Origin: an uncultured Flavobacteriales bacterium
Lineage (GTDB): Bacteria; Bacteroidota; Bacteroidia; Flavobacteriales_G; Salibacteraceae
Length of the DNA stretch: 64,000 nucleotides
Direction of reading: 5' to 3'
Assembly: GCA_913020435.1 (NCBI GenBank)
Contig: CAJVZZ010000011.1
Span: 1 to 64,000, forward strand
Below the pieces are notes generated by a model. It ran no database searches and had not been told where the DNA came from. It saw nothing but the letters and a program-made list of their open reading frames with translations. Numbering within the stretch: the first letter of the stretch is position 1; every line of letters starts with the position of its first letter. Shown in pieces: positions 5,154 through 32,115 of the stretch. A program made the position numbers and the translations under genes.

Positions 5154-5865
5154 GACTTCTTAAGTCGACAAATGGACTTTCAAAATCTGAGGTTTTCATG
5201 TGTTCAACCAACATTTTTGCTGTCTCTTCAGGAGTTTGTAGCATTCCAGTTTCTTTCATTTCGATAAAACGATCAACCATGTCAAACTTATCCTTTGGAG
5301 TACTTCTGATTTTTTCTTGCATTGGTGACTCAACAATTCCTGGGGCAATTGCCTGAATTGAAAATTCCTTGATGCCGTTTATTTCAGCCTCTTCCTTCAC
5401 TACTTCGGTAAGCATATTTAATCCTGCTTTTGTAGCACAATACATTCCCCAACCCGGGTACGGAGCAACTGATGCTCCAGAACTAATATTCAGAATAATT
5501 TTTTCGGCATCCTTCTCGCTGTAAGCATTCAAAAAATTATTGATAAGAATAGCAGGTGCAACCAAGTTCAGTTGATAAGCGTCCGCCATTTCTGTCCCGT
5601 CTAATTGCCCGTGGTATCCTATTTCTCCAAGTGAACCTGCATTGTTTATTAAATACACCTTATCCGCTTTAAAATGATCGCCAAATCGAACTTTTGCAGT
5701 TGCAACAGCGTCAGATAAGTCTACTTTTCGATGCACATAATTTGGATGTGCGATTTCACAAGTTCGCGACATTCCAACCACGTGATTCTCTTCATCCTTC
5801 AATAACTCTTCGGCCAGTGCAAACCCTAAACCAGATGATGTTCCTGTAATATAAAATACCTTCAT
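5137..5865 (-). CDS. SDR-family NAD(P)-dependent oxidoreductase
   Basis: A classical short-chain dehydrogenase of 242 residues. The cofactor-binding motif TGTSSGLG is at residues 8-15, the NNAGS motif at about 74-78, a catalytic Ser in NISSGASVAPYPG and the YxxxK pair in YCATKAG. The short length and the early Arg/Ser-rich cofactor region resemble sepiapterin-reductase-like or YciK-like SDRs, but the substrate cannot be read from the sequence. It lies 4 bases downstream of the cystathionine gamma-synthase-like gene and is probably co-transcribed with it. Cytoplasmic. Confidence 0.88.
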   Translation of the reverse strand: MKVFYITGTSSGLGFALAEELLKDEENHVVGMSRTCEIAHPNYVHRKVDLSDAVATAKVRFGDHFKADKVYLINNAGSLGEIGYHGQLDGTEMADAYQLNLVAPAILINNFLNAYSEKDAEKIILNISSGASVAPYPGWGMYCATKAGLNMLTEVVKEEAEINGIKEFSIQAIAPGIVESPMQEKIRSTPKDKFDMVDRFIEMKETGMLQTPEETAKMLVEHMKTSDFESPFVDLRSLIESK

Positions 5866-5869
5866 AATC

Positions 5870-7012
5870 TTACCCTTCTATTGCTTGTTTTAAATCGGCA
5901 ATCAAATCTTCCGCGTCTTCTATTCCGACACTCAATCGAATCATCGAATCTTTTATTCCTGTTTTTTCTCTTTCTTCTTTTGGAATTGATGCATGTGTCA
6001 TTGATGCGGGATGTCCGCACAAAGATTCTACTCCACCAAGACTTTCGGCAAGGGAGAATACCCTAACACTTGAAACAATTTTTTTTGCTGTCTCGTAACT
6101 ATCTTCTACCGCAGTGAAAGACATCATACCACCAAAATCACGCATTTGTGATTTTGCTACTTTATGATTTGGATGATTTTCGAAACCTGGCCAATACACT
6201 TTATCAACCGCTGGATGACTTTCTAAAAATTCAGCAATTTTTGCACCGTTTTCACAGTGTCTTTGCATTCTTAAGTGCAAGGTTTTAATTCCTCGAAGCA
6301 CCAAAAAAGAATCCATTGGCCCGCAAACTGCACCAGACGAATTCTGTATAAAATATAATTGTTCTGCTATCTCATCATCATTAATAATTAAAGCGCCCAT
6401 TACTACATCAGAGTGGCCTCCAAGATATTTAGTAGCAGAATGCATTACGATATCTGCACCCATATCCAAGGGGTTTTGCAAGTAAGGACTAGCAAATGTG
6501 TTGTCAACCCCTAGCATACAGTTGTGTTTTTTTGCAAATGAAGATGCTTTCTTAATATCAATAATATTAAGCATTGGATTAGTGGGAGTTTCTATCCAAA
6601 CTAATTTGGTATTTTCATTTACTAAATCATCTAGCTTATCAAAATCAGTCATTTCAGTAAAATGAAACTTGATTCCGTACTTCTCAAATATTTTAGTAAA
6701 AATTCGATAAGTTCCTCCATACAAATCACTCGTAGAAATTACCTCATCGCCAGGGTTCAACATTTTAATTACAGCATCAATCGCCGCCAATCCACTTCCA
6801 AAACACAATCCATGTTTTCCGTTTTCAATAGACGCAAGGTTATTTTCTAAAGCATGCCTTGTTGGATTTTGAGTTCGGCTGTACTCGTACCCTTTATGCT
6901 CGCCGAGTGAATTCTGCACGTATGTTGACGTTTGATAAATCGGCGTCATTATCGCCCCTGTTGACGGGTCGGGAATCAATCCTCCGTGAATTACTTTAGT
7001 ACCGATTTTCAA
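5870..7012 (-). CDS. Cystathionine gamma-synthase/gamma-lyase family PLP enzyme
   Basis: Fold-type I PLP enzyme of Cys/Met metabolism. Hallmarks are GTKVIHGG at the N-terminus, GYEYSRTQNPT, FGSGLAAIDAV (phosphate binding), the GVDNTFASPYLQNP segment with the PLP-contacting Asp, and the PLP lysine K195 in SATKYLGGHSD. The C-terminal LAESLGGVESL and PASMTHA motifs fit cystathionine gamma-synthase, beta/gamma-lyase or O-succinylhomoserine sulfhydrylase, which cannot be told apart by eye. The start codon is TTG at 7012-7010; no ATG precedes it in frame and the N-terminal alignment supports it. A TACATTTG -7 box lies about 28 bases upstream. Confidence 0.9.
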   Translation of the reverse strand: MKIGTKVIHGGLIPDPSTGAIMTPIYQTSTYVQNSLGEHKGYEYSRTQNPTRHALENNLASIENGKHGLCFGSGLAAIDAVIKMLNPGDEVISTSDLYGGTYRIFTKIFEKYGIKFHFTEMTDFDKLDDLVNENTKLVWIETPTNPMLNIIDIKKASSFAKKHNCMLGVDNTFASPYLQNPLDMGADIVMHSATKYLGGHSDVVMGALIINDDEIAEQLYFIQNSSGAVCGPMDSFLVLRGIKTLHLRMQRHCENGAKIAEFLESHPAVDKVYWPGFENHPNHKVAKSQMRDFGGMMSFTAVEDSYETAKKIVSSVRVFSLAESLGGVESLCGHPASMTHASIPKEEREKTGIKDSMIRLSVGIEDAEDLIADLKQAIEG

Positions 7013-10657: not shown

Positions 10658-11041
10658 ATGGGAAAAGCTGATATTAACTCAAGAAAAGATATCCATTCGT
10701 TGGTTTATACTTTTTATGAAAAAGTAAAACTTGACACTACACTTGGCCCTATTTTCATTAGAGCTATTCAAGATTGGCCAACACATATTGAACATTTAAC
10801 TGATTTTTGGCAGTCTCAATTGTTATTCAATAAACGCTTTCGAGGTAATCCTGTCGAGGCTCATATAAAGATTGATAAAGATTGATAAAGATGAAAGTCA
10901 TTCTATTTCATCCGAGCACTTTGGTTTGCTACCATTGATGATTTATTTGAAGGAGAAATTGCAGAACGCGCCAAAAGGAACGCACGAAAAATGAATACTC
11001 AATTATTCCTTAAAATTTGGGAAGCACGACAAAAAACTTAG
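10658..11041 (+). pseudogene. Broken group 3 truncated haemoglobin
   Basis: The first 75 codons encode a group 3 truncated haemoglobin N-terminus: DIHSLVYTFYEKV (Tyr20 in the B10 position), LGPIF, FWQSQLLFNKRFRGNP and the proximal His in VEAHIKID. A perfect tandem 10-base repeat (10871-10880 and 10881-10890) shifts the frame and brings in TGA at 10883. The conserved continuation, DKDESHSISSEHF, is in the next frame up to about 10921; then the reading returns to the original frame with WFATIDDLFEGEIAERAK and runs to TAG at 11039. So there are two indels, the duplication and an apparent loss of about 7 bases near 10920. Native function would be oxygen or NO binding; the gene is probably dead. 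Confidence 0.8.
10871..10890 (+). repeat. 10-base tandem duplication ATTGATAAAG
   Basis: Two adjacent identical 10-base units. The second copy is the frameshifting insertion in the haemoglobin gene: removing it continues the globin reading into a conserved SSEHF segment. Confidence 0.85.
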
Positions 11042-16084: not shown

Positions 16085-17812
16085 ATGAGTTTGCAATTAT
16101 CTGAACAGGAAATAGTTAGAAGAGAAGCATTGGATAAAATGCGTGCGTTAGGAATTAACCCTTACCCAGCAGAAAAATTTGATGTAAACGCAACTACCAA
16201 AGAAGTTTTAGCCAATTTCGATAAGGATAAACTCAACTTTCAAGAAGTAAGTATTGCTGGCCGAATGATGTCTAAACGTATTATGGGAAAGGCTTCTTTC
16301 GCTGAAATACAAGATTCGACTGGTCGCATGCAAGTCTATATTGCTCGTGATGAAATTTGCGATGGTGAGGACAAAATGATGTACAACGACGTTTTCAAAA
16401 AGCTCGTTGACATTGGTGATTTTGTTGGGCTAAAAGGATATGTTTTTGTTACGCAGGTAGGCGAAACGTCTTTATACGTTAACGATTTTAAAGTACTGAG
16501 CAAATCATTGCGTCCGCTTCCAATTGTAAAAACCGATGCTGATGGAAATGTACATGATGCTTTTACCGATCCAGAATTAAGATACCGTCAACGGTATGTC
16601 GATTTAATAGTAAACGATGGAGTAAAAGAAACGTTTATTAAACGAAATCGCATTATGAACGCAATGCGTAAGTTCTTTAATGACAAAGGATACTTAGAAG
16701 TAGAAACTCCAATTCTACAGCCTATCCCGGGTGGTGCTGCGGCGCGACCATTTATGACGCATCACAATGCATTGGATATTCCATTGTACTTAAGAGTTGC
16801 CAATGAATTGTACCTAAAACGATTGATCGTTGGTGGTTTTGATGGTGTTTATGAATTTGCCAAAGACTTCAGAAACGAAGGAATGGACCGAACGCATAAC
16901 CCTGAGTTTACAGTAATGGAAATCTATGTAGCTTACAAAGACTACCACTGGATGATGGATTTTACCGAGAAAATGCTGGAAACAGCAAGTATGGCTGCAA
17001 ACGGATCAACAAAGGCAACTATTGGTGAAAACGAAGTTGAATTTAAAGCTCCTTATGCTCGGATTCCTATGCTTACAGCAATCAAAGATCATACAGGTTA
17101 TGACTTGAATGGAAAGTCTGAAGCTGAAGTTCGCGAAGCGGCTTTGGCACTAGGTTTAGAGGTGGACGAATCAATGGGCAAAGGAAAGTTGATTGATGAA
17201 ATTTTTGGTGAAAAATGTGAGCACAATTACATTCAGCCTACCTTCATTACCGATTACCCGGTTGAAATGTCTCCGTTGTGCAAAAAGCACCGAGACGACG
17301 ATTCGCTTACTGAGCGTTTTGAGCTTTTTGTAAACGGGAAGGAGTTAGCGAATGCTTATACTGAGTTGAACGATCCAATCGATCAGCGTGAGCGATTTGA
17401 AGAGCAAATGAAGCTTTCAGAAAAAGGTGATGATGAAGCCATGTTTATCGATCAAGATTTCTTGCGTGCCTTAGAATACGGAATGCCTCCTACTTCAGGA
17501 ATGGGCATCGGAATCGACAGATTGTGTATGTTTTTGACCAACAGCCCCAGTATTCAAGATGTGTTGTTTTTTCCTCAAATGCGCCCAGAAAAATTTGACG
17601 CTCCCATCCAAAAGACCTTGGAACTTAACGACAACGAAAAAGCAATTTTCGATATTCTAAAAGTGCGTGAGCGTATTGAAATTAGTGAGCTAAAAGAATT
17701 GGCCGGACTCAGCGGAAAAGGCTGGGACAAGGGGATAAAAGGCCTTTCAAAACATGGCGTTGCTAAAGTTGAGAAAACGGAAGCGGGTGTTTTTGTAGGG
17801 GTTATTGGGTAG
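16085..17812 (+). CDS. lysS: Lysyl-tRNA synthetase, class II, with C-terminal extension
   Basis: Charges tRNA-Lys with lysine in the cytoplasm. The N-terminal OB-fold anticodon-binding domain spans about residues 55-160 ([21 protein letters not shown]). The class II catalytic core has motif 2 in [20 protein letters not shown] and motif 3 in [15 protein letters not shown], plus lysine-pocket residues [12 protein letters not shown]. The core ends near residue 505. An added 65-70 residues after EKFD look like a small winged helix ([21 protein letters not shown]); such extensions are, from memory, common in Bacteroidota LysRS and absent in E. coli. Confidence 0.97.
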
Positions 17813-18151: not shown

Positions 18152-19576
18152 ATGAATTGCTCACTATTGTTGAGGTACTCAACCTTATTTATACTACTCA
18201 ATTTGATATTATTGGGACAAAACTTTGCCCAATCTCAAGTTGTTTTTTCCAAAGCAGTTAATAGCAAAGCTTATATTGAAAACGTTTGGCCTACCAATGA
18301 CGGCGGTTACATTGCCGGAGGTGTTTACCAATGGTTTGACACAAGTATCAGTGCGATTAATTATGACCATTACATCCTTAAAACAGATTCTGCAGGCAAC
18401 ACGCTGTGGGAAAGGATATACGACTTCACCACCAATGATGGATGGTGTTTGAGTGGAAGCACAATCAGAGAGCTAAGCGACGGCGGTTTCGCCTATATCG
18501 GCGCCGTAAATTGCGGTCAAAATGGTTGGCCAGCTCTAAGTAAATACAACTTATTACGTTTAGATAGTTCCGGAGACACATTATGGACAAAAACCTATGA
18601 ACGTGGTCTAAGAAGCATGGGGCAGTGGGTAGAACCGACAGCCGATGGCGGGTTTATTATGACTGGTTATGCCGCCAATTTTGGGAGTAGTGCAGATGCT
18701 TACGTTGTAAAAACCGATAGTTTGGGAGCTGTAGAATGGACGAAAGAATATGAATTAGAACTCGAAGAACAGACAACCTGTGTAAGGCAAACAGCTGATG
18801 GTGGATATATACTGGTTGGAGGTAGCTCTAATCCAAATGTGGCTCCGAAGGCCCGTACATGGTTGTTGAAATTAGATGCTATCGGTGATACCCTTTGGAC
18901 TAAAGTCTACCCATGGGGAATGTGGCAAATTAATGCCTTTGTGGAAGTAACACCAGATAACGGATACATTGTGTCGGTAAAAGATTCTTCGATTCATCAA
19001 CGCGTGTTCAAAACGGATAGTTTAGGTGAAATAGAATGGACCAAAAATTTTGGTCAAGGTACTGGTTGTGTTGCTCAAACTGCTGACAACGAATTTGCCG
19101 TTTTTGGCAACAACTATTTTACCAAAACAGATGCTAGCGGAAATATGATTTCTTCTCAAACCACTAATTTTAGTCCGGTTTTTTGGCGCGCTACTCCTGA
19201 TAATGGATTTATTACCACGACAGGAAACCACTTGATAAAAACGGATTGTGAAGGTAATCGGAGCTTTTGGGATACACTGAGCTGTCCTGCTCCAATAATA
19301 CCTCAAGATACCAGTGCTGTAACTCTCGGTAATGTAGAAGTTGAACAAACCTCAGATATAGTTGTTTTTCCCAATCCAACTGAGGGTGTTTTTACCCTGG
19401 AAGGGTCTGAAATTGGACGAATTGAAATCTTTGATATAACCGGAAAGTCTATTTTAAACGCAGAAGCAACAACCTCCTCAACAACGCTTAATTTGAGCGA
19501 GTATAAAAAAGGATTATACTTCGTAAAAGTTGTAACCAATGCTAAAACTAACATCATAAAATTAGTGGTTCAGTAA
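18152..19576 (+). CDS. Secreted repeat protein (beta-propeller-like) with T9SS sorting domain
   Basis: Residues 1-27 are a signal peptide (LLNLILLGQNFAQ). The body consists of about seven or eight repeats of roughly 45-50 residues with the pattern DGGY/F-I-xGG ... LKTDSxGNTLWxKxY, for example WPTNDGGYIAGGVY, ELSDGGFAYIGA, ADGGFIMTGY, ADGGYILVGGS and DNGYIVSV. Each ends in a 'lie down' TDSLG-x-xEWTK strand. This resembles bacterial beta-propeller proteins of the delta-60/FlgD-associated sort. The last 75 residues (VVFPNPTEGVFTLEG, DITGKSIL, GLYFVKVVTN) form the T9SS type A domain. Surface-exposed; ligand unknown. Confidence 0.85.
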   Translation: MNCSLLLRYSTLFILLNLILLGQNFAQSQVVFSKAVNSKAYIENVWPTNDGGYIAGGVYQWFDTSISAINYDHYILKTDSAGNTLWERIYDFTTNDGWCLSGSTIRELSDGGFAYIGAVNCGQNGWPALSKYNLLRLDSSGDTLWTKTYERGLRSMGQWVEPTADGGFIMTGYAANFGSSADAYVVKTDSLGAVEWTKEYELELEEQTTCVRQTADGGYILVGGSSNPNVAPKARTWLLKLDAIGDTLWTKVYPWGMWQINAFVEVTPDNGYIVSVKDSSIHQRVFKTDSLGEIEWTKNFGQGTGCVAQTADNEFAVFGNNYFTKTDASGNMISSQTTNFSPVFWRATPDNGFITTTGNHLIKTDCEGNRSFWDTLSCPAPIIPQDTSAVTLGNVEVEQTSDIVVFPNPTEGVFTLEGSEIGRIEIFDITGKSILNAEATTSSTTLNLSEYKKGLYFVKVVTNAKTNIIKLVVQ

Positions 19577-22350: not shown

Positions 22351-25300
22351 ATGAAAAGAAACACAACTATACTGCTCATCATTCTCTGTTTTTCTGGAGG
22401 ATTAAGAAGTCAATTCGTCGATGCTTTTACTGATGGTGACATTACTACAAACCCGACATGGATTGGAGATGATTCACTGTTTATAGTTAATAGCAGCAGT
22501 GAATTGCAATTAGCTGATTCCAATTATTCCAATTCAACAACCTACCTCAGCACAGCGAGTAAAGCGATAAGTAATGCCGTTTGGGAGTTTAAATTTAAAT
22601 GTAACTTCCCTCCATCAAGTTCAAATTTTGCTGAAGTGCATTTAGTTTCGGATAATGCCTATGTTACCGGAAATAACAACGGTTATTTTATTCAAATTGG
22701 AAGTGAAACTGGAACTACCGATAAGGTTACCTTGTACAAATCAACAAATGGTAGTAAGTCCGCAATAATTTCTGGAAGAGCAGGAACAGTGGGTACAAAC
22801 CCTGAAGGATGGATAAAAGTATCTCGTGATAGTATAGGAAATTGGGAACTTTTACTAGACACCTCTGTTACAAAATCGGGATACATTAGCGAAGGGACCG
22901 CTCTGAACACCGACTTTATTTCAGGTGACTTTTTTGGTATTCAATGCAAATACACAACCGGCAGAAAATTATTGTTCTATTTCGACTCCATAACAGTCAC
23001 TGGATCATATTATGCCGATACCATAAAGCCTGTTTTATCCTATCTATCGGTTGTAAACTCATCGGCACTAGAACTTTTGTTTTCTGAAAACATAGAATCG
23101 ATAACTGGATTATTGGCTACAAATTATTCTGCAAACAACGCTGCTGGAAACCCCTCTTCAGTTAATTATAAAGGAACGGATTCCTCGATAGTAGAATTGA
23201 CTTTTTCTACTGCATTCACCAGTGGAACCAACTATATCTTGAGTACAATCAACATAGAGGATCGAAATGGAAACGTAATTAATTCAACAAACAAAAACTT
23301 TCAATATGTAAAACTGGATACCGCTAAAAAAGGCGAAGTTCAAATCAATGAGATTATGGCAGATCCAAATCCAGCAGTGTTGCTTCCGGCAAATATGGAT
23401 TGGGTGGAATTGTACAATTCAAGTTCAAAGTCTTTTTCTTTAAAAGGATGGACGTTTTGGGATAAAACCTCAACAACTCGAGACACTTTGCCAAATGAAG
23501 TTATCTTAACAAATGAGTATGTGATTCTTTGCGATGCATCTGACTCTGCTGCTTTGGCAGGCTTAGGTGGCCGTGTTATTCCTATGCAAGGGTTCCCTGC
23601 TTTAAATATTGATAATGAGTTAATTACATTGAGAAATCAATTTGGTATTCTTATCGACGAAATCAATTATTTCAAATCATGGTATGGCGATGAAGACAAG
23701 GAATCTGGTGGATATACGCTGGAAAAAATAAATCCAAATCACCCCTGTTCTAATAGCGCTAACTGGAAAGCCTCAAACGATTCAAAAGGAGGAACGCCTG
23801 GATTTAGAAACAGTGTTTACAATATAACCCCCGAATTTGATCGTCCCATACTGATTTCTGCCACTATTCAAAATCTAAGTAGAATTGAGCTTCGTTTTTC
23901 TAAAAAACTAGATAGCCTTTCTCTCATAAATTCAGTAATAACAGGAGTTAGTGTTTCTCAATTCCAAGTTTCAGAAGCACAAAGTGAATCTGCGCTATTA
24001 ATCTTATCAAATCCACTTGAAGAAGGCATTGTTTACAAGCTGTCTATGAAAGGCGCAGCAGACTGCTTTGGCAACTTAATTACTGACAATGAGATAACCT
24101 TTGGAAAGGGCAAAACACCCAGTATTCACCAAGTGGTGATCAATGAAATTTTCCCCATTCCCGATATTAAGCTAAATCCTACATTCGATTCAGAATTTGT
24201 TGAATTGTACAACAACACAACTTCTTTAATTGGTTTAGACAGTTGTTTCTTTTCCGACTTAAGCTCAGATGCTTCTTTAAATGGAGCAATCATTGAGCCT
24301 AATGAATACTTGATTATTTGTGAAAACGCAGCGGTTGAAAATTTATCGAAATACGGTAACATTATTGGTCTTTCCGGTTGGCCTTCGCTTAATAATTCTG
24401 GTGATGTTTTGTCCTTGACCTGCAAAAACCAACGCATTCATACCGTTGAATACGATGACGATTGGTATCAATTAGAAGATAAAAAAGAAGGTGGATGGTC
24501 CTTGGAACAGATTGATGCTGCCAACCCCTGTGGAAAAAATTTAAATTGGAAAGGTTCTCTTGATGCAAACAGAGCGACTCCGGGAAAAGACAATTCCATC
24601 TTAGGTATACTAAAAGATGATGCGGCTCCAGAAATCATAAGTGCAAATGCTATTAATGACTCTACTTTACTAATCGAGTTTAATGAGAACATATCACTAA
24701 CTGACTTTAACACGGCAAGTTTTAACATTACTCCTGCCGTTATTGCCGAATTTGATTCCCTACGAGGGAAGAAAGCCTTGATTTTGCGACTTAAAACACC
24801 GCTTTTAGTTAGAACAATATACACTTTGACGGTAACCGGAATAAGCGATTGCGTTGGAAACTCCACAATTAGCCTAATAGTAAGTTTTGGCCTACCAGAA
24901 AATGGAAGTCCTGGTGATTTGGTTATTAATGAAGTATTATTTGATGCTTTTTCCACTGCCTCTACAGACTTTGTGGAAATTTATAATCGAAGCAAAAAAG
25001 TCATTAACCTACAAGGTTGGTTTATCGCTGATTTTGATGAAAATAAAGACACTTTGGATGGTTTTCAACTCATTTCTGATGAGCCTAGATCAATACTTCC
25101 AAATGAGTTTATCGTTATTAGCAAAAGCAATCAAGATCTTGTTAAACATTACACAACACTAGATGAAGAAACCTTCATACAAATCACAAGCATGCCTTCC
25201 TATCCTAACGATGAGGGGTCGGTACTACTGCTAAATGATTCTGGCTTAGTAATAGATCGTTTTGATTATTACTCAGACCTTCACCATGTAATCATTAAAA

Positions 25301-25758
25301 ACACGGAGGGAATTTCATTGGAACGATTGGACTATGAGCGGGCATCCGACGACGAGACCAATTGGCACAGTGCGGCTCAATCTGTTGGATTTGCTACACC
25401 CGGCCTTGAAAATTCACAGTTTAAAACTTCTTTTAATTTTTCAGAGAATGTAGTGGTTGAACCGCAAACTTTTTCACCAGATAATGACGGTTTTAATGAT
25501 GTTTTGAACGTAAATTATGCGTTTGACACACCTGGAAATGTTGCAAATATTGAAATTATGAATACGGATGGACGTCCAATCAAGATATTATCTCAAAATG
25601 AATTACTCGCAATTTCTGGTACAATTTCATGGGACGGAAGCTCGGATAACAACCTGAAAGCCAGAGCGGGCATATATATCGTTCATTTTGAAATATTCAA
25701 TGAAAAAGGTGAAAATCAGCGATTTAAAAAAGTTTGTGTTCTTGCCGTAAATTTTTAA
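22351..25758 (+). CDS. Giant secreted lamin-tail-domain protein with gliding-motility-type C-terminus
   Basis: A 1135-residue exported protein. After a signal peptide (residues 1-20), residues about 20-220 look like a concanavalin-like sandwich. Then Ig-like (Big_5/SbsA-type) domains, recognisable by ALELLFSENIES, IELRFSKKLDSLS and LLIEFNENISLTDFN, alternate with three lamin-tail domains that start GEVQINEIMADPNP, HQVVINEIFPIPD and GDLVINEVLFDAFS and each contain a VELYN/VEIYN strand. The C-terminal 95 residues (PQTFSPDNDGFNDVLNVNY, ISWDGSSDNN, RAGIYIVHFEIFN) resemble the FlgD-like or gliding-motility-associated type B sorting region. Probably surface-displayed; function unknown. Confidence 0.82.
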   Translation: MKRNTTILLIILCFSGGLRSQFVDAFTDGDITTNPTWIGDDSLFIVNSSSELQLADSNYSNSTTYLSTASKAISNAVWEFKFKCNFPPSSSNFAEVHLVSDNAYVTGNNNGYFIQIGSETGTTDKVTLYKSTNGSKSAIISGRAGTVGTNPEGWIKVSRDSIGNWELLLDTSVTKSGYISEGTALNTDFISGDFFGIQCKYTTGRKLLFYFDSITVTGSYYADTIKPVLSYLSVVNSSALELLFSENIESITGLLATNYSANNAAGNPSSVNYKGTDSSIVELTFSTAFTSGTNYILSTINIEDRNGNVINSTNKNFQYVKLDTAKKGEVQINEIMADPNPAVLLPANMDWVELYNSSSKSFSLKGWTFWDKTSTTRDTLPNEVILTNEYVILCDASDSAALAGLGGRVIPMQGFPALNIDNELITLRNQFGILIDEINYFKSWYGDEDKESGGYTLEKINPNHPCSNSANWKASNDSKGGTPGFRNSVYNITPEFDRPILISATIQNLSRIELRFSKKLDSLSLINSVITGVSVSQFQVSEAQSESALLILSNPLEEGIVYKLSMKGAADCFGNLITDNEITFGKGKTPSIHQVVINEIFPIPDIKLNPTFDSEFVELYNNTTSLIGLDSCFFSDLSSDASLNGAIIEPNEYLIICENAAVENLSKYGNIIGLSGWPSLNNSGDVLSLTCKNQRIHTVEYDDDWYQLEDKKEGGWSLEQIDAANPCGKNLNWKGSLDANRATPGKDNSILGILKDDAAPEIISANAINDSTLLIEFNENISLTDFNTASFNITPAVIAEFDSLRGKKALILRLKTPLLVRTIYTLTVTGISDCVGNSTISLIVSFGLPENGSPGDLVINEVLFDAFSTASTDFVEIYNRSKKVINLQGWFIADFDENKDTLDGFQLISDEPRSILPNEFIVISKSNQDLVKHYTTLDEETFIQITSMPSYPNDEGSVLLLNDSGLVIDRFDYYSDLHHVIIKNTEGISLERLDYERASDDETNWHSAAQSVGFATPGLENSQFKTSFNFSENVVVEPQTFSPDNDGFNDVLNVNYAFDTPGNVANIEIMNTDGRPIKILSQNELLAISGTISWDGSSDNNLKARAGIYIVHFEIFNEKGENQRFKKVCVLAVNF

Positions 25759-25822
25759 TTACAAGTTAGTGGTTATCAGTAAATAAAATAGTTTATTTGT
25801 AAAAATCATAATATTTAAAAAG

Positions 25823-28423
25823 ATGAAAAAACTTATATTTTCTGTTTTGAGTGTTTTTGTTGCTACAATTGCAATTCAATCACAAACAATCTTAACATCT
25901 CAAAGTTTTGAGAGTGGTCCTTCAACAGGTTGGACTTATACTACCAATCCTGCTGCCTTTTCGGTTGGAAGTGATATCTGGGATACAGTAACTACTCTGA
26001 CAAGCGTAACATCTATGCCGACAGACGCTACACGCTTCTGGGGCATACAGGATCTGGCAAATGGTAACGGAGGAACTGCTACTGGTGATTCAGGCACAAT
26101 CAGTTTTGTCTCATATACAATACCGGCTAACACAAATGTTAGTGTTAGTTTCGACTATGATGTTGTTGGGTTTGATGCTGGTGATGACGTAGATTATGAA
26201 GTTTTTGAAAATGGTACATCAAAAGGAATTGTAAATCTTGTAGTTGGTGCATCGGGAGGAACAAGTAGTTCTGGAACGGAATCAATTTCAATAACTGCTG
26301 GAACCGATAGTGTTTCTATTAAGCTTTATGTCACCCAAAATGGTGGTTCTGATTATGCTGGTTTTGATAATTTTAAAGTTACTAGTGTTCCGGCTTGCTG
26401 TCCAATAGCTGCCGCTCCTACCCCGACAAATGATAGTGCTGATGTTATTTCAGTTTACAGTGATGCTTACACTGACATTGTAGGAACAAATTTTAATCCT
26501 AATTGGGGACAGGCTACTGTTGTAGATCAAACTGTTAAAATTCAAGGAAACAGCACTATTAAATATTCTAACCTTGATTACCAAGGGCTTTCATTCGCCG
26601 GATCTAACGATGTTTCTTCAATGGAATATTTGCACGTTGATATCTGGTCTAAAAGCTCTACAGCTCTAAGACTTTTTACAATCAGCACAGGACCTGTGGA
26701 AGTTTCTTACACAGTTGCTGTTCCTACAACGGGATGGTTGAGTTTGGATATTCCATTATCTGCTTTTGGAGCAGTTGACATGGCTGATCTTATTCAGTTC
26801 AAATTTGACGGAAACGGTGAGTTCTGGATGGACAACTTGTTCTTCTACAAAATTCCTCAAGCAACAACTCCTGCTCCAGAACCTACTCGTGCTGCTTCTG
26901 ATGTTATTTCTATCTATAGTGATACTTACACTGATATTGCCGGAACAGATTTCAATCCTAATTGGGGGCAGGCTACTGTTGTAGATCAAACTGTTAAACT
27001 TCAAGGAAACAATACCATTAAATATTCTAACCTTGATTACCAAGGAATTGCTTTAGCTGGATCTAATGACGTTTCTGCAATGGAATATTTGCATGTTGAC
27101 ATCTGGTCTGCTACTTCTACGGCTTTAAATCTTTTTATGATCAGCACTGGACCCGTGGAAATTTCTTACACAGTTACTGTTCCTACAGCGGGGTGGTTGA
27201 GTTTAGATATTCCTTTATCTGCTTTTGGAGCAGTTAATATGGCTGATCTTATTCAGTTCAAATTTGATGGAAACGGTAAGTTTTGGATGGATAACTTGTA
27301 CTTATACAAATTGCCAACCTATACTATTGGAACGGTTTCAACAACGGATTCTTTAGGAATGCCGGATTCTTTAAACCTTGAATGTTATGTTTCAGGTACT
27401 GTTTTCACGGGAGATTATGACGGAAATGCAGGCATTAGCTTCTATATGATGGACAACACTGGTGGAATCAATGTTTTCAATTTTAGAGATGTAAGTAATT
27501 ACGTTGTTAAAGACGGTGACTCAATCCTAGTTAAGGGGGCTATTAAAAATTATAACGGACTATTAGAGCTTGTTGCTGATTCAATTATAGTTCTTGATTC
27601 AAATAAAACTTATGCAGCGGCTAAGGTTGTTTCAACGCTTGATGGGTCAACAGAATCAGAATTCATTGAATTGAAATCTGTTCATTTGGCTGATGCCTCT
27701 CAATGGCCATCATCAGGCAGAAGTGTTAACGTAGATATTATTACACAAGCAGGAGACACTCTTCTTATGAGAATTGACGGTGATGCTGGAATAGATAGTA
27801 TTAGTCCTGGTTGTCAATTTAACATTACAGGAGTTGGAGCGCAATATGATAGAAGCTCTCCTTACACTTCAGGATATCAAATTTTTCCTAGAAAAGCTAC
27901 AGACATCAAAAATGTAAATTCTGTAATTGACCAGACTGTAGCTAATATTTCTGCAGATGGTGGTGATGTTTCTTGGGCTTCTGTTACTGGAGCTACTTCT
28001 TGGAATATCGGTTGGGCAAAAGGAATGGCATCTATTGCGCCTACTGATTCTGTTTTGGGAATAGCGACTAATCCTTATACAATTTCAGGATTAAGTGCCG
28101 ACACAAATACACATTACCATGTTTGGATTCAAGATGTATGTGGACAAAACATGGGTCAATGGGATGGTCCAGTTATGTTCAGTGCTGATGTTACTAGTAT
28201 TGATGAATTGGCTTCAGGAAAAGTCCTTATCGCTTTCCCTAACCCAAACAATGTTGGTTCTGTAAGATTGAACAGAGTTACTGATGTTGTTATTCGTAAT
28301 CTATTGGGTCAGCCAGTTATTGTGAAAACAAACACTGACGAAATCGATATCAATGAGCTTTCTTCAGGTATTTACTTGCTAGAATCTGCTGAAGGAGATA
28401 CCGTTAAGTTAATTGTTGAATAA
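25823..28423 (+). CDS. Secreted carbohydrate-binding-like repeat protein with T9SS sorting domain
   Basis: 866 residues with a signal peptide (residues 1-21). Residues about 22-190 form a jelly-roll-like domain (FDNFKVTSVPACC). Two closely similar domains of about 140 residues follow (207-346 and 360-500), each beginning DVIS-x-YSD-x-YTDI and containing FNPNWGQATVVD, MEYLHVDIWS, WLSLDIPLSAFGAV and FWMDNL. I recall this domain from accessory regions of marine Bacteroidota glycanases, which suggests glycan binding. An OB-like domain (about 505-690, with VKGAIKNYNGLLELVADS), a fibronectin-III-like domain and a T9SS type A domain complete the protein. No catalytic motif is seen. Confidence 0.83.
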   Translation: MKKLIFSVLSVFVATIAIQSQTILTSQSFESGPSTGWTYTTNPAAFSVGSDIWDTVTTLTSVTSMPTDATRFWGIQDLANGNGGTATGDSGTISFVSYTIPANTNVSVSFDYDVVGFDAGDDVDYEVFENGTSKGIVNLVVGASGGTSSSGTESISITAGTDSVSIKLYVTQNGGSDYAGFDNFKVTSVPACCPIAAAPTPTNDSADVISVYSDAYTDIVGTNFNPNWGQATVVDQTVKIQGNSTIKYSNLDYQGLSFAGSNDVSSMEYLHVDIWSKSSTALRLFTISTGPVEVSYTVAVPTTGWLSLDIPLSAFGAVDMADLIQFKFDGNGEFWMDNLFFYKIPQATTPAPEPTRAASDVISIYSDTYTDIAGTDFNPNWGQATVVDQTVKLQGNNTIKYSNLDYQGIALAGSNDVSAMEYLHVDIWSATSTALNLFMISTGPVEISYTVTVPTAGWLSLDIPLSAFGAVNMADLIQFKFDGNGKFWMDNLYLYKLPTYTIGTVSTTDSLGMPDSLNLECYVSGTVFTGDYDGNAGISFYMMDNTGGINVFNFRDVSNYVVKDGDSILVKGAIKNYNGLLELVADSIIVLDSNKTYAAAKVVSTLDGSTESEFIELKSVHLADASQWPSSGRSVNVDIITQAGDTLLMRIDGDAGIDSISPGCQFNITGVGAQYDRSSPYTSGYQIFPRKATDIKNVNSVIDQTVANISADGGDVSWASVTGATSWNIGWAKGMASIAPTDSVLGIATNPYTISGLSADTNTHYHVWIQDVCGQNMGQWDGPVMFSADVTSIDELASGKVLIAFPNPNNVGSVRLNRVTDVVIRNLLGQPVIVKTNTDEIDINELSSGIYLLESAEGDTVKLIVE
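26441..27320 (+). repeat. In-gene tandem duplication of a binding domain
   Basis: Two direct repeats 459 bases apart (starting 26441 and 26900), each encoding about 140 residues. The protein copies are identical over long stretches, and much of the DNA between 26490-26570 and 26950-27030 is identical too. Confidence 0.85.
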
Positions 28424-28447
28424 GAACACTTACAAATTATAAAACTG

Positions 28448-28481
28448 AAACCCCTTTCGTTTATTCGAAAGGGGTTTTTTT
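28448..28481 (+). terminator. Rho-independent terminator
   Basis: AAACCCCTTTCG pairs perfectly with CGAAAGGGGTTT around a six-base loop and runs into a series of T. It follows the stop at 28423 by 24 bases. Confidence 0.9.
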
Positions 28482-28657
28482 ATGGAATATTCTTATGATT
28501 TGAAAAACACCTATAGCTTCAGCTAGAAACCAACTAGGACAATTTAGAAAATCAACTTTTCAATTTGCTGATGTAAACCTGTGTGAAAATTTTAATGTTA
28601 GGGTAACACTTAAAGTGGTCTAATTTGCTTCTTTTGCCAAAAATATAACCAGATAAA

Positions 28658-31600
28658 ATGAAAAAATTTACTTCTTTATTATTAACTGTTTTAGCTAGTG
28701 CGGTTTGCTTTGGGCAAATTGTTATTACTGAGATTTCATACAATGGTCCAGAGAGTGGCACGGATACAACTGAATTTATTGAGCTTTACAATAAAACTTC
28801 TGCTTCGATTAATCTTTCAGGCTACTCGTTCTCTCAAGGCGTAACATATACCTTTCCGAATGTTAGTATTGGGGCAAATGGATATCTCGTAATTGCAGTT
28901 GATTCTGCTGCGATTATGAATGTTTTTGGTGCTTCGGCTCGCCAATGGACAAGTGGTGGATTATCTAATGGTGGTGAAGACATTGTTCTTGAAAATTCTA
29001 CTGGAGTTACAATTGATTCAGTAGATTATGATGATGGTGGTATATGGCCTTCTGATCCAGATGGTAATGGTTCAACTTTGGTTTTCTGTGATACATCGAA
29101 AGATAACAATGATGGGACCAATTGGAAAGCTTCAACGTATACAGTTGCAGGTAAAATTGTTAATGCTAAACAAGTGTATGGTTCTCCTGGAAAGGCTGAT
29201 TCGGTTTGTATTTCTGGACCTCCTTCACCTCCAATTCTTAATACAAATACAATTGGTTCAGTTACAACTGATGACGCTAACGGCGAGCCAGATTCAAATG
29301 GTGTTAAGTGTAATATAGTGGGAATCGTTCATGGAATTAACATGGGCGGCACAAGCACTCAATACATTTTACTTGATGTTACTGGTGGGATTACCGTAAG
29401 AAAAAGTGGTGGGTTCACTCCAAGTTATGTGGTAAATGAGGGTGATTCCATCACTGTTTGGGGAACAGTAGGGCATTACAATGGATTGACCCAATTCAAT
29501 GCTGACTCTATGAAAGTTTTAAGTTCGAATGGTAGAATTCGAACAGCAAGAAAGGTGGCTACGCCAAATTCTAGCACTGAATCAGATTACATTAGAATTG
29601 ATTCAGTAACGATTATTAGCGGAACTTGGCCTATGGCAGGAAATAGTGCTAATATAATATTAGAAACTCCAGCAAAAGATACGGTTACAATGAGAATTGA
29701 TCGTAATGGATTAGTTGACGATAGTGTTACAACTGCTCCAACGGGAATGTTTGATTTAATTGGATACGGAGGTCAATTTGATGGTTCTGTTCCGAGAACT
29801 AGTGGTTACCAAATTTTACCTCAAGTAAAAGGCCATATTATAATTCGGGCAACATGTAATGACCCATCTGGGGCAACACTAATTCAAGCTTCAACAACTG
29901 CAGCAAGATTAACTTGGACTTCAGGAAGTGGTGTTTCAAATATTGAATTCGGTGCACTAGGATATACTCAAGGCACAGGAACAATAGTTTCAAGCCAAAG
30001 TAGCCCTTATATAATTACTAACCTTACAACAGGTAGCTCTTACGATGTTTATTATCAAGATACGTGCACTGGCGTTGGAACATCTAACTGGGTAGGTCCT
30101 GTAACCGTTACTTTAAGTGCTTCACCCCAAATAAGTGCAATATGGAGAACAACTAGCACTAATGTTATGGTCGCTTATACGGACTCTATGTCTAATGCAA
30201 GCGCTACTTCAACTTTTAGATACAAAGGTATTACTGGTTTAACTTCAGTTGCTTTAAACGGAAGCAATGACACAGCCACACTAACTTATGGAGCTCCATT
30301 TGTAAATGGCGATTTAAATATTCTTACTATCGATAGTGTGACGAGTGCAACGCTCGTGATGTTAGATACTGCTTATACGCATGAGTTTATTTACAACAAC
30401 ACTAAACCAAGTATTGTAATCACTGAAATTATGTACAATGACCGTTCTGGTGCAGATACTCTTGAATACCTAGAAATTCACAATTCTGGTACATCGGTAG
30501 CTTTTGTTGGTGGAATGGAGTTTACTCAGGGGATAACTTATACTGTGCCTGCTAACTACGGAATTCCTGCTGGAGCATATTTAGTAATTGCAAAAAATGC
30601 TTTAACGCACACTGCAATATTCGGAAACACCTTTGTTGATCAATGGACTTCTGGTGGACTTTCTAATGGTGGAGAGGATATCGCAATTGTAAACTCTGAG
30701 GGAGATACTATCGATTATGTGAATTATTCGGATAGAGGTACATGGCCAACAGATCCTGATGGAAATGGTTTCTCTCTTGTCTTGTGTGATGTTTTTTCAG
30801 ACAATAATCTAGGATCAAGTTGGGGTGTAGAACCAGCACAAGCAGGTACAAGCGGATACAACGCTTCTCCTGGTATGGCTAATACATGTCGCCCTCCGTT
30901 TGTTCCTCCTTTTTATACCATCTCTGCAGTAACTACAGTTGATGCCTCTGGTGTTGCAGATAGCAACGGTGTTAAGTGTTCAGTAAAAGGGTTAGTTGCT
31001 TCTAACCAATTCTCTACAGCTGGTGCTTCAGGTCCTGATGTGCAGTTTACAGTTATCGAAGCAGATAATAGTGCTGGTGTAACTGCCGTTTCTTTCAACG
31101 ATGCAGCTACTTTGGGGTATTCTCCATTATTAGGGGATAGCGTTCAACTTTATGGAACTCTTAATCAGTTTAGAGGCCTTTTACAATTCAACATGGACTC
31201 AGTTAAAGTTATTTCTTCTGGGCATGCTATGCCTGCTCCAGAAAGGGTTGATACAATTGCTGAAATTCACGAATCGAGAATTATTAGAATTAGTGGTGTA
31301 GAGATCGTTGATCCTTCTCAATGGCCTGCGGCTGGTTCAGATGCAAATGTTGATATTATTAATATGAAAGGGGATACTATCATAATGAGAATTGACCAAC
31401 ATACGAATACTGTTGCTTCTTGGATAAGCGCTCCTATTGGAAAATTCGAAGTAATTGGTGTTGGTGGACAATATAGCTTCAACAACATAGATGGTTATCA
31501 GTTGCTTCCACGCTTTGATTCAGATATAGATACTTCTAAGAAGGTACTTCCTTGTCCAATTCCTAAAGAACTTTCGACTTCAGTTATTGCTGAACAAAGT

Positions 31601-32056
31601 GCTACTGTAACTTGGGATTCTCCAGGAACTACATGGAATATTGGTTGGGCTAAAGGTCACATGTCTACAATGCCTACTGATTCGGTAATGGCGATAACGA
31701 CTAAACCTTACACTATTACCGGATTGGATACGAACACCCATTATCACGTTTGGGTTCAAGAAGTTTGTCCTAGTGGAGTTTCAGAATGGGCTGGCCCACT
31801 TATGTTCAAAACACTTACTGCTACTGTCGGAATTTTGGAATTAGCTACTGCCAAAGCGTTAATTGCTTTCCCTAATCCTAACAATATTGGTTCTTTAAGA
31901 TTAAACAGAATTACTGATGTTGTTATTCGCAACCTATTAGGACAGCCTGTTATTGTGAAAACTAACGCTGACGAAATCGATATAAATGAGCTTTCTTCAG
32001 GTATCTACTTATTGGAATCTGCTGAAGGCGATACCATCAAGTTGATTGTTGAGTAA
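28658..32056 (+). CDS. Giant secreted lamin-tail/OB-domain protein with T9SS sorting domain
   Basis: 1132 residues. Signal peptide 1-20 (LLLTVLASAVCFGQ). Two large homologous blocks follow. Each block has a lamin-tail domain (IVITEISYNGPESGTDTTEF; IVITEIMYNDRSGADTLEY, both with QWTSGGLSNGGED) and then an OB-like domain opened by a DANGEPDSNGVKC / DASGVADSNGVKC motif with a later GxLxQFxxDSxKVxSS strand. An Ig-like region (about 490-590) lies between them. A fibronectin-III-like domain (ATVTWDS, WNIGWAKGH) and a T9SS type A domain end the protein. Lamin-tail plus OB combinations occur in secreted nucleases, but no nuclease motif is visible. Confidence 0.83.
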   Translation: MKKFTSLLLTVLASAVCFGQIVITEISYNGPESGTDTTEFIELYNKTSASINLSGYSFSQGVTYTFPNVSIGANGYLVIAVDSAAIMNVFGASARQWTSGGLSNGGEDIVLENSTGVTIDSVDYDDGGIWPSDPDGNGSTLVFCDTSKDNNDGTNWKASTYTVAGKIVNAKQVYGSPGKADSVCISGPPSPPILNTNTIGSVTTDDANGEPDSNGVKCNIVGIVHGINMGGTSTQYILLDVTGGITVRKSGGFTPSYVVNEGDSITVWGTVGHYNGLTQFNADSMKVLSSNGRIRTARKVATPNSSTESDYIRIDSVTIISGTWPMAGNSANIILETPAKDTVTMRIDRNGLVDDSVTTAPTGMFDLIGYGGQFDGSVPRTSGYQILPQVKGHIIIRATCNDPSGATLIQASTTAARLTWTSGSGVSNIEFGALGYTQGTGTIVSSQSSPYIITNLTTGSSYDVYYQDTCTGVGTSNWVGPVTVTLSASPQISAIWRTTSTNVMVAYTDSMSNASATSTFRYKGITGLTSVALNGSNDTATLTYGAPFVNGDLNILTIDSVTSATLVMLDTAYTHEFIYNNTKPSIVITEIMYNDRSGADTLEYLEIHNSGTSVAFVGGMEFTQGITYTVPANYGIPAGAYLVIAKNALTHTAIFGNTFVDQWTSGGLSNGGEDIAIVNSEGDTIDYVNYSDRGTWPTDPDGNGFSLVLCDVFSDNNLGSSWGVEPAQAGTSGYNASPGMANTCRPPFVPPFYTISAVTTVDASGVADSNGVKCSVKGLVASNQFSTAGASGPDVQFTVIEADNSAGVTAVSFNDAATLGYSPLLGDSVQLYGTLNQFRGLLQFNMDSVKVISSGHAMPAPERVDTIAEIHESRIIRISGVEIVDPSQWPAAGSDANVDIINMKGDTIIMRIDQHTNTVASWISAPIGKFEVIGVGGQYSFNNIDGYQLLPRFDSDIDTSKKVLPCPIPKELSTSVIAEQSATVTWDSPGTTWNIGWAKGHMSTMPTDSVMAITTKPYTITGLDTNTHYHVWVQEVCPSGVSEWAGPLMFKTLTATVGILELATAKALIAFPNPNNIGSLRLNRITDVVIRNLLGQPVIVKTNADEIDINELSSGIYLLESAEGDTIKLIVE

Positions 32057-32082
32057 GAACACTTTCAAAACTTTAAAATTGA

Positions 32083-32115
32083 AAACCCCTTTCGTTTATT
32101 CGGAAGGGGTTTTTT
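32083..32115 (+). terminator. Rho-independent terminator
   Basis: AAACCCCTTTCG pairs with CGGAAGGGGTTT (one G-T pair) and is followed by a T-run. The sequence is nearly the same as the terminator at 28448, including the preceding TAAGAACACTT after the stop codon. Confidence 0.9.

What the first reader, a model, noticed from the sequence alone, without database searches (positions are those of the whole stretch)
28190..32115. C-terminal sorting domain and terminator nearly identical in two adjacent giant genes
Seen: the last 65 residues of the 25823 and 28658 proteins (LIAFPNPNN.GS.RLNR.TDVVIRNLLG onward) differ at only about five positions, and the 3' flanks match too, both reading TAAGAACACTT shortly before a terminator built on AAACCCCTTTCG. 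Upstream parts of the proteins are far less alike, although both carry a WNIGWAKG fibronectin-like domain. Inference: recent duplication or gene conversion limited to the 3' module, so that a new passenger protein acquires a ready-made secretion tail and terminator.
Basis: seen in the sequence. Interest (0 to 1): 0.5.

Follow-up and report, generated by a model that had tools for sequence, protein, structure and literature searches.

The report
Secretion tail shared by neighbouring genes
Two neighbouring bacterial genes for large secreted proteins carry almost the same export tail and transcription stop on quite different bodies, and relatives suggest the gene body was swapped by recombination while the tail end stayed behind; it is a new example of known surface-gene recombination.

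Summary
Genes A (25823-28423) and B (28658-32056) share a type A T9SS sorting tail (60 of 65 residues identical, 88% DNA) plus 3' UTR and terminator; similarity stops at the U-tract. Bodies share only older homology: OB/DUF5689-like plus Fn3, 39% identity, synonymous sites near saturation.

It is a phylogenetic conflict, not mere conservation. B's tail is closer to A's tail (87%) than to B's own ortholog in same-genus G003 (69%), whereas B's terminal OB domain is 73% identical to G003's and only 21-44% per window to A's. One breakpoint beats all 2000 shuffles. The tail probably came from B's lineage into A.

The locus is a conserved slot behind gene X: 20 of 24 relatives examined have one such gene there. 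G001 and G002 hold only A, G003 only B. Between G001 and G002 a 2.9-kb near-identical island runs from X's sorting domain to A's stop codon, between strongly diverged flanks. I infer passenger replacement by homologous recombination with the tail as right arm. 'Recent' is not supported for A/B (tail dS 0.68). A second tail family with unlike bodies exists in the genome.

The parts
22351..25758 (+). gene X: LTD/Big_5 secreted protein with C-terminal CHU_C (T9SS type B-like) domain at about 25462-25719; left neighbour of the slot
   Evidence: CHU_C is below Pfam's cut-off (25.0 against 27)
25471..28423 (+). window equivalent of the low-divergence island between G001 and G002 (X sorting domain to stop codon of A)
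25823..28423 (+). gene A, 866 aa: A_N domain 25823-26398, two ~150-aa repeats about 26399-27316, OB/DUF5689-like 27317-27907, Fn3-like 27923-28192, tail
28226..28420 (+). A tail: T9SS type A sorting domain (TIGR04183, 30.8 bits, cut-off 23)
28421..28480 (+). A stop, 3' UTR and terminator hairpin (28447-28478)
28481..28657 (+). A-B spacer; its last ~70 bases resemble the X-B intergenic region of G003, so it is probably B's old promoter region; a relic of X's end further upstream is uncertain
28658..32056 (+). gene B, 1132 aa: LTD1 28712-29029, OB1 29243-29839, Fn3-like, LTD2 about 30413-30892, OB2 30911-31528, Fn3 31562-31801, tail
31859..32053 (+). B tail: T9SS type A sorting domain (TIGR04183, 32.9 bits)
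32054..32115 (+). B stop, 3' UTR and terminator hairpin (32081-32114)

Best explanation
A and B are two alternative occupants of one conserved locus (a secreted OB/DUF5689-like protein directly behind X) that sit side by side in this genome. B is the old occupant of the lineage; A is a newcomer body. The A body spread through the genus by homologous recombination. Crossovers fell in homologous flanks: on the left in the C-terminal sorting domain of X, on the right in the T9SS tail, stop codon and terminator of the resident gene. So the newcomer kept, or took, a resident tail and terminator and was at once a complete secretion substrate with a transcription stop. Shown: the tail/body phylogenetic conflict, the conserved slot, the G001-G002 island and its borders. 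Inferred: direction from B to A, replacement of B by A in G001 and G002, how the window came to keep both, and recombination (perhaps after DNA uptake) as the agent.
For: Tail against body conflict: OB windows A-B 21-44% aa and B-G003 63-83%; tail windows A-B 90-93% and B-G003 73-77%. Trees: OB2 of B with G003 (99.7/100), apart from A; tails of A with B (94.4/98), G003 outside (98.1/98). Single breakpoint chi2 57.1 against a maximum of 18.6 in 2000 shuffles. Direction: A tail to G003 68%, the level of B orthologs, while other genera give 48% or less. B is ancestral: G003 and the neighbouring genera G005, G008, G014 have the LTD type in the slot. Island: G001-G002 0 of 840 differences at 26127-26966; X codons 976-1050 dS 1.94, codons 1051-1135 dS 0.10; Q dS 1.57; mismatches fall from 18/60 to 0/60 at 25470/25471 and rise from 3/60 to 15/56 plus gaps just past the stop. 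It is the longest single and most identical island in 342 kb aligned (mean 78.8%). Terminators of G002 and G003 differ from those of the window and G001, as expected of resident 3' ends.
Against: For A of G001 and G002 the best breakpoint lies in Fn3 (A residue 740-742), not at the tail start. G001 and G002 still differ at several sites in the last 197 coding bases, so the right border is not clean. Two other kb-scale islands in the 400 kb show no T9SS tail at their borders as far as I looked, so tails are not needed for exchange. Window-G001 divergence varies widely (dS 0.06-2.07), so the island is less telling for that pair. A and B together are seen in one draft genome only. The test for a relic of X upstream of B is weak (17 of 1000 shuffles as good). 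Nodes that place A's OB among other genera have low support.
Confidence: 0.7

Rival explanations
1. Local gene conversion between the two tandem genes, limited to tail and terminator, followed by later spread of A.
For: Tail and terminator are the part most alike at DNA level; tandem neighbours are good substrates for conversion.
Against: The window's A and B tails (dS 0.68) are no closer to each other than B is to the A tails of G001 and G002 (0.54), which lack B; so any conversion predates or coincides with the split of these lineages.
Confidence: 0.2
2. Whole-gene tandem duplication of B, with the 5' part of one copy evolving fast into A.
For: Tandem position, common domain order OB-Fn3-tail.
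Against: OB of A does not group with B plus G003 (joining nodes weakly supported); the A body is slow between species, dS about 0.2. Whole-gene duplicates in this genome have tails about as diverged as bodies (body/tail 67/71% and 75/63%).
Confidence: 0.04
3. Purifying selection on a functional sorting signal keeps both tails alike.
For: T9SS tails are a conserved family.
Against: B-G003 tails are only 69% identical; synonymous sites and the non-coding terminator are alike too; nearly all other tails in the genome are not alike at DNA level.
Confidence: 0.02
4. Assembly artefact: A and B come from different strains joined in one draft contig.
For: Only one genome holds both; record titles of three relatives say MAG and the own genome is in 50 contigs.
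Against: B keeps a G003-like promoter region; both genes sit in a 100-kb contig; the tail conflict and the G001-G002 island rest on separate assemblies. Read coverage could not be checked.
Confidence: 0.04

Closest known systems
Porphyromonas gingivalis gingipain/HagA domain rearrangement and allelic exchange (PMC5266723, passages read)
   Same: T9SS surface proteins with modular bodies and a conserved ~80-aa C-terminal domain; exchange by homologous recombination and gene conversion
   Different: There the variable parts described are adhesin and catalytic domains; the passages I read do not treat the sorting tail plus terminator as a crossover arm, nor a tandem pair of alternative occupants of one slot
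T9SS type A sorting domain family TIGR04183/PF18962
   Same: Both tails are members by the NCBIfam cut-off
   Different: The family is defined by protein profile; here two members are alike at DNA level and share the 3' UTR and terminator
DUF5689 protein RA0C_RS04920 of Riemerella anatipestifer, essential for natural transformation (PMC8459023, passages read)
   Same: DUF5689/OB-type domain; surface location predicted
   Different: Its neighbour is a carboxypeptidase-regulatory-domain protein, not X; orthology not tested; DUF5689 in A is just under Pfam's cut-off (26.3 against 28.6)

Membership tests
T9SS type A sorting domain (TIGR04183) | NCBIfam score above 23 bits at the extreme C-terminus | tested here: met
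   A 30.8, B 32.9 bits, ending one residue before the last
T9SS type A sorting domain (PF18962) | Pfam gathering score 27 | tested here: not met
   A 25.5, B 24.6 bits, just below
T9SS type A sorting domain (TIGR04183) | actual secretion and tail removal | not testable with these tools
   needs bench work
Homologous recombination / gene conversion tract | phylogenetic conflict between tract and surroundings with a significant breakpoint | tested here: met
Homologous recombination / gene conversion tract | kb-scale identity island with sharp borders between species | tested here: met
   G001-G002; right border less clean than left
DUF5689 (PF18942) | Pfam gathering score 28.6 | tested here: not met
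   A 26.3; slot proteins of G011 (40.9) and G014 (33.5) pass
Dispersed terminator repeat | terminator core more frequent in the genome than a control pattern | tested here: not met
   25 sites against 28 for the control

The most novel reading that the evidence does not exclude
In T9SS bacteria the sorting-tail-plus-terminator block is a general recombination handle: incoming secreted-protein bodies cross over in a resident tail, so unlike passengers are exchanged in frame with a ready export signal and stop. The A/B slot, the G001-G002 island and the second tail family (an endonuclease I, a repeat protein and a broken copy sharing a tail at 77-81% DNA identity) would be three snapshots of it.
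Probability: 0.3. Interest if true: 0.65.

Novelty: new variant of a known kind. Interest (0 to 1): 0.45.

Why it matters
T9SS genomes can carry over a hundred proteins with one kind of C-terminal tail (125 matches here). If tails and terminators act as crossover arms, that explains how secreted bodies are exchanged without losing export, and it predicts where recombination borders should lie in other Bacteroidota.

Tried and rejected
Rejected: whole-gene duplication of B as the source of A; selection alone; terminator as a dispersed repeat. Tried without result: a donor for the A-B spacer (beyond itself only weak matches, best E 0.001, no long one); an empty site for the orphan tail fragments of G001 (of 3 genomes, G000 and G002 have no match to the flanking gene and G003 only a 35% one); a name for the A_N domain (none). 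The X relic upstream of B stayed undecided. Literature searched: 'type IX secretion' + 'gene conversion' (5 papers listed, passages of one read), 'C-terminal domain' + 'type IX secretion' + 'domain shuffling' (0), 'C-terminal domain' + 'T9SS' + 'intragenic recombination' (0), 'por secretion'/'C-terminal domain'/'homologous recombination'/'gingipain' (79 papers, 12 listed, listing only), 'type IX secretion' + 'C-terminal sorting domain' + 'modular' + 'horizontal gene transfer' (0). None of what I saw describes this; the library is open-access papers only.

Full report
What is there. Gene A (25823-28423, 866 aa) and gene B (28658-32056, 1132 aa) are neighbours on the + strand. Both end in a T9SS type A sorting domain by NCBIfam (30.8 and 32.9 bits, cut-off 23), though both fall just below Pfam's cut-off for the same domain. 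Their last 65 residues differ at 5 positions. The DNA match runs on through TAAGAACACTT, a short 3' UTR and a strong hairpin with a U-tract, and then stops. Upstream the proteins are related but old: OB-fold (DUF5689-like) plus Fn3, 39% over 306 residues without the tail, synonymous sites near saturation (dS 2.06 in OB against 0.68 in the tail). B has two LTD domains that A lacks; A has an N-terminal domain and two ~150-residue repeats that B lacks.

Is it special in this genome? The genome has 125 matches to the type A tail model. I fetched stretches meant to cover these hits (and the window) and extracted 124 tail sequences by iterative HMM, some places appearing twice through overlapping loci. 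At DNA level (E at most 1e-4) the distinct-place pairs over about 180 bases or more were: A/B 88%; three tails at C2:1148, C2:2563 and C29:645 at 77-81%; and one tandem pair at C4 at 78%, whose bodies are also alike (67%). Three more pairs matched over only 23-84 bases. A further pair (C1/C16) has bodies 75% and tails 63% in protein. So whole-gene duplicates have tails about as diverged as bodies, and A/B (39% body, 91% tail) is an outlier.

A locus with one slot. In 20 of the 24 relatives whose locus I fetched, a gene of this type lies directly behind an X homolog; in G017 X is 3.4 kb away, in G028 X was not found beside it, G018 shows no X, and G007 is cut by the contig end. Each of the 20 has one such gene there; only the window has two. 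The C-terminal part always has OB plus tail, while the N-terminal part varies: LTD in B, G003, G005, G008, G014 and G006; the A_N type in A, G001, G002 and, far away in the tree, G015 and G023. The X+Y tree is (((window,G001),G002),G003) with G005, G008, G014 next (some deeper nodes are weak). So the LTD type is ancestral here and A is the newcomer.

The conflict. I compared the C-terminal parts of A from three genomes with B of the window and B of G003. In the OB part B is close to G003 (63-83% aa per window of 30 columns) and far from A (21-44%). In the tail this reverses (A-B 90-93%, B-G003 73-77%). The OB tree (51 domains) and the tail tree (26 tails; the truncated G018b protein was left out) say the same; an Fn3 tree of 10 sequences keeps A apart from B. 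A single breakpoint explains the site patterns far better than any of 2000 shuffles: at A residue 811 for the window's A, but at 740-742 for A of G001 and G002; the exact left edge is therefore uncertain. The tails of A are as near to G003 (65-68%) as B is (69%), while tails of other genera are at 48-49% or less. If the tail of B had been overwritten by A's own old tail, that value should be low. I therefore infer that A took its tail from the B lineage.

The island. Synonymous divergence between G001 and G002 is mostly 0.8 to saturation in Y, X, Q and genes beyond (two X windows are lower, 0.43 and 0.10, the last being inside the island). In the last 85 codons of X and in A it is 0.00-0.34. 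At base level mismatches fall from 18/60 to 0/60 at window position 25470/25471, which is codon 1041 of X, the start of its CHU_C domain (residues 1038-1123). They rise from 3/60 to 15/56 plus gaps right after A's stop codon. Between them 840 bases are identical. In 400 kb around the locus (342 kb aligned, mean 78.8%), 67 of 3272 windows of 300 bases reach 93%, in 10 islands; the longest single and most identical one (2400 bases, 97.5%) is this one. The others include conserved housekeeping genes (ribosomal proteins and a tRNA synthetase by my own reading) and kb-scale stretches at 977.1-980.8 kb and 1087.6-1089 kb without a T9SS tail at their borders as far as I looked. So kb-scale exchange between these species happens elsewhere too, and the sorting domains as borders may be helpful homology rather than a special site. 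The window's A shows the same left border against G001, but that pair is heterogeneous everywhere (dS 0.06-2.07).

Reading. The simplest account is exchange of the slot's body by homologous recombination, with X's end as left arm and the resident tail and terminator as right arm. G001 and G002 then show A in place of B; the window shows both. How the window kept both is not settled: the ~70 bases upstream of B resemble the X-B intergenic region of G003 including the very end of X, which suggests that A with its terminator was inserted just behind X, but a longer relic of X is only weakly supported (17 of 1000 shuffles).

What the proteins may do. The OB domain's weak best matches among solved structures are replication protein A OB folds (E 0.012). 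A DUF5689 protein is essential for natural transformation in Riemerella anatipestifer (PMC8459023, passages read). A role of the slot proteins in handling DNA at the surface is a lead, not a result; the neighbour gene differs and orthology was not tested.

A second tail family. C2:1148-1354 (a repeat protein), C2:2563-2751 (a broken copy) and C29:645-854 (endonuclease I, PF04231) share a tail at 77-81% DNA identity with unlike bodies. G001 has 7 protein-level and 15 DNA-level matches to this family or part of it, several of them 5'-truncated pieces between genes, several ending about 44 bases past the stop. This supports the idea that tail-end pieces get copied, by a route I did not resolve.

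Names.

Noticed in passing
L245:1148-1354 (+), L245:2563-2751 (-), L246:645-854 (-) (own genome C2 and C29): Three places with unlike bodies (repeat protein, broken copy, endonuclease I) share a T9SS tail at 77-81% DNA identity; a second case of tail sharing.
   Followed up: partly
L263:3993-4164, 5307-5367, 10884-10979, 16573-16741, 18988-19106; L264:1497-1558, 5609-5988; L265:5284-5350: In G001, 5'-truncated pieces of that tail and its 3' flank lie scattered between genes, several ending at the same base about 44 bases after the stop; looks like a dispersed repeat of unknown mechanism. A tyrosine recombinase-like ORF lies near one copy (my reading of the sequence, no search).
   Followed up: partly
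L305 (G001:C3:977101-980800) and L311 (G001:C3:1087601-1089000): Further kb-scale high-identity islands between G001 and G002, around an outer-membrane-like protein gene and a membrane protein gene (my reading).
   Followed up: partly
26399-26860 and 26873-27316: Gene A holds two ~150-aa tandem repeats; a related copy (56-63%) is in another T9SS-tailed gene at C9:494-1816 of the own genome (L143).
   Followed up: no
window's genome: 125 matches to the T9SS type A tail model in a 2.95-Mb genome.
   Followed up: no
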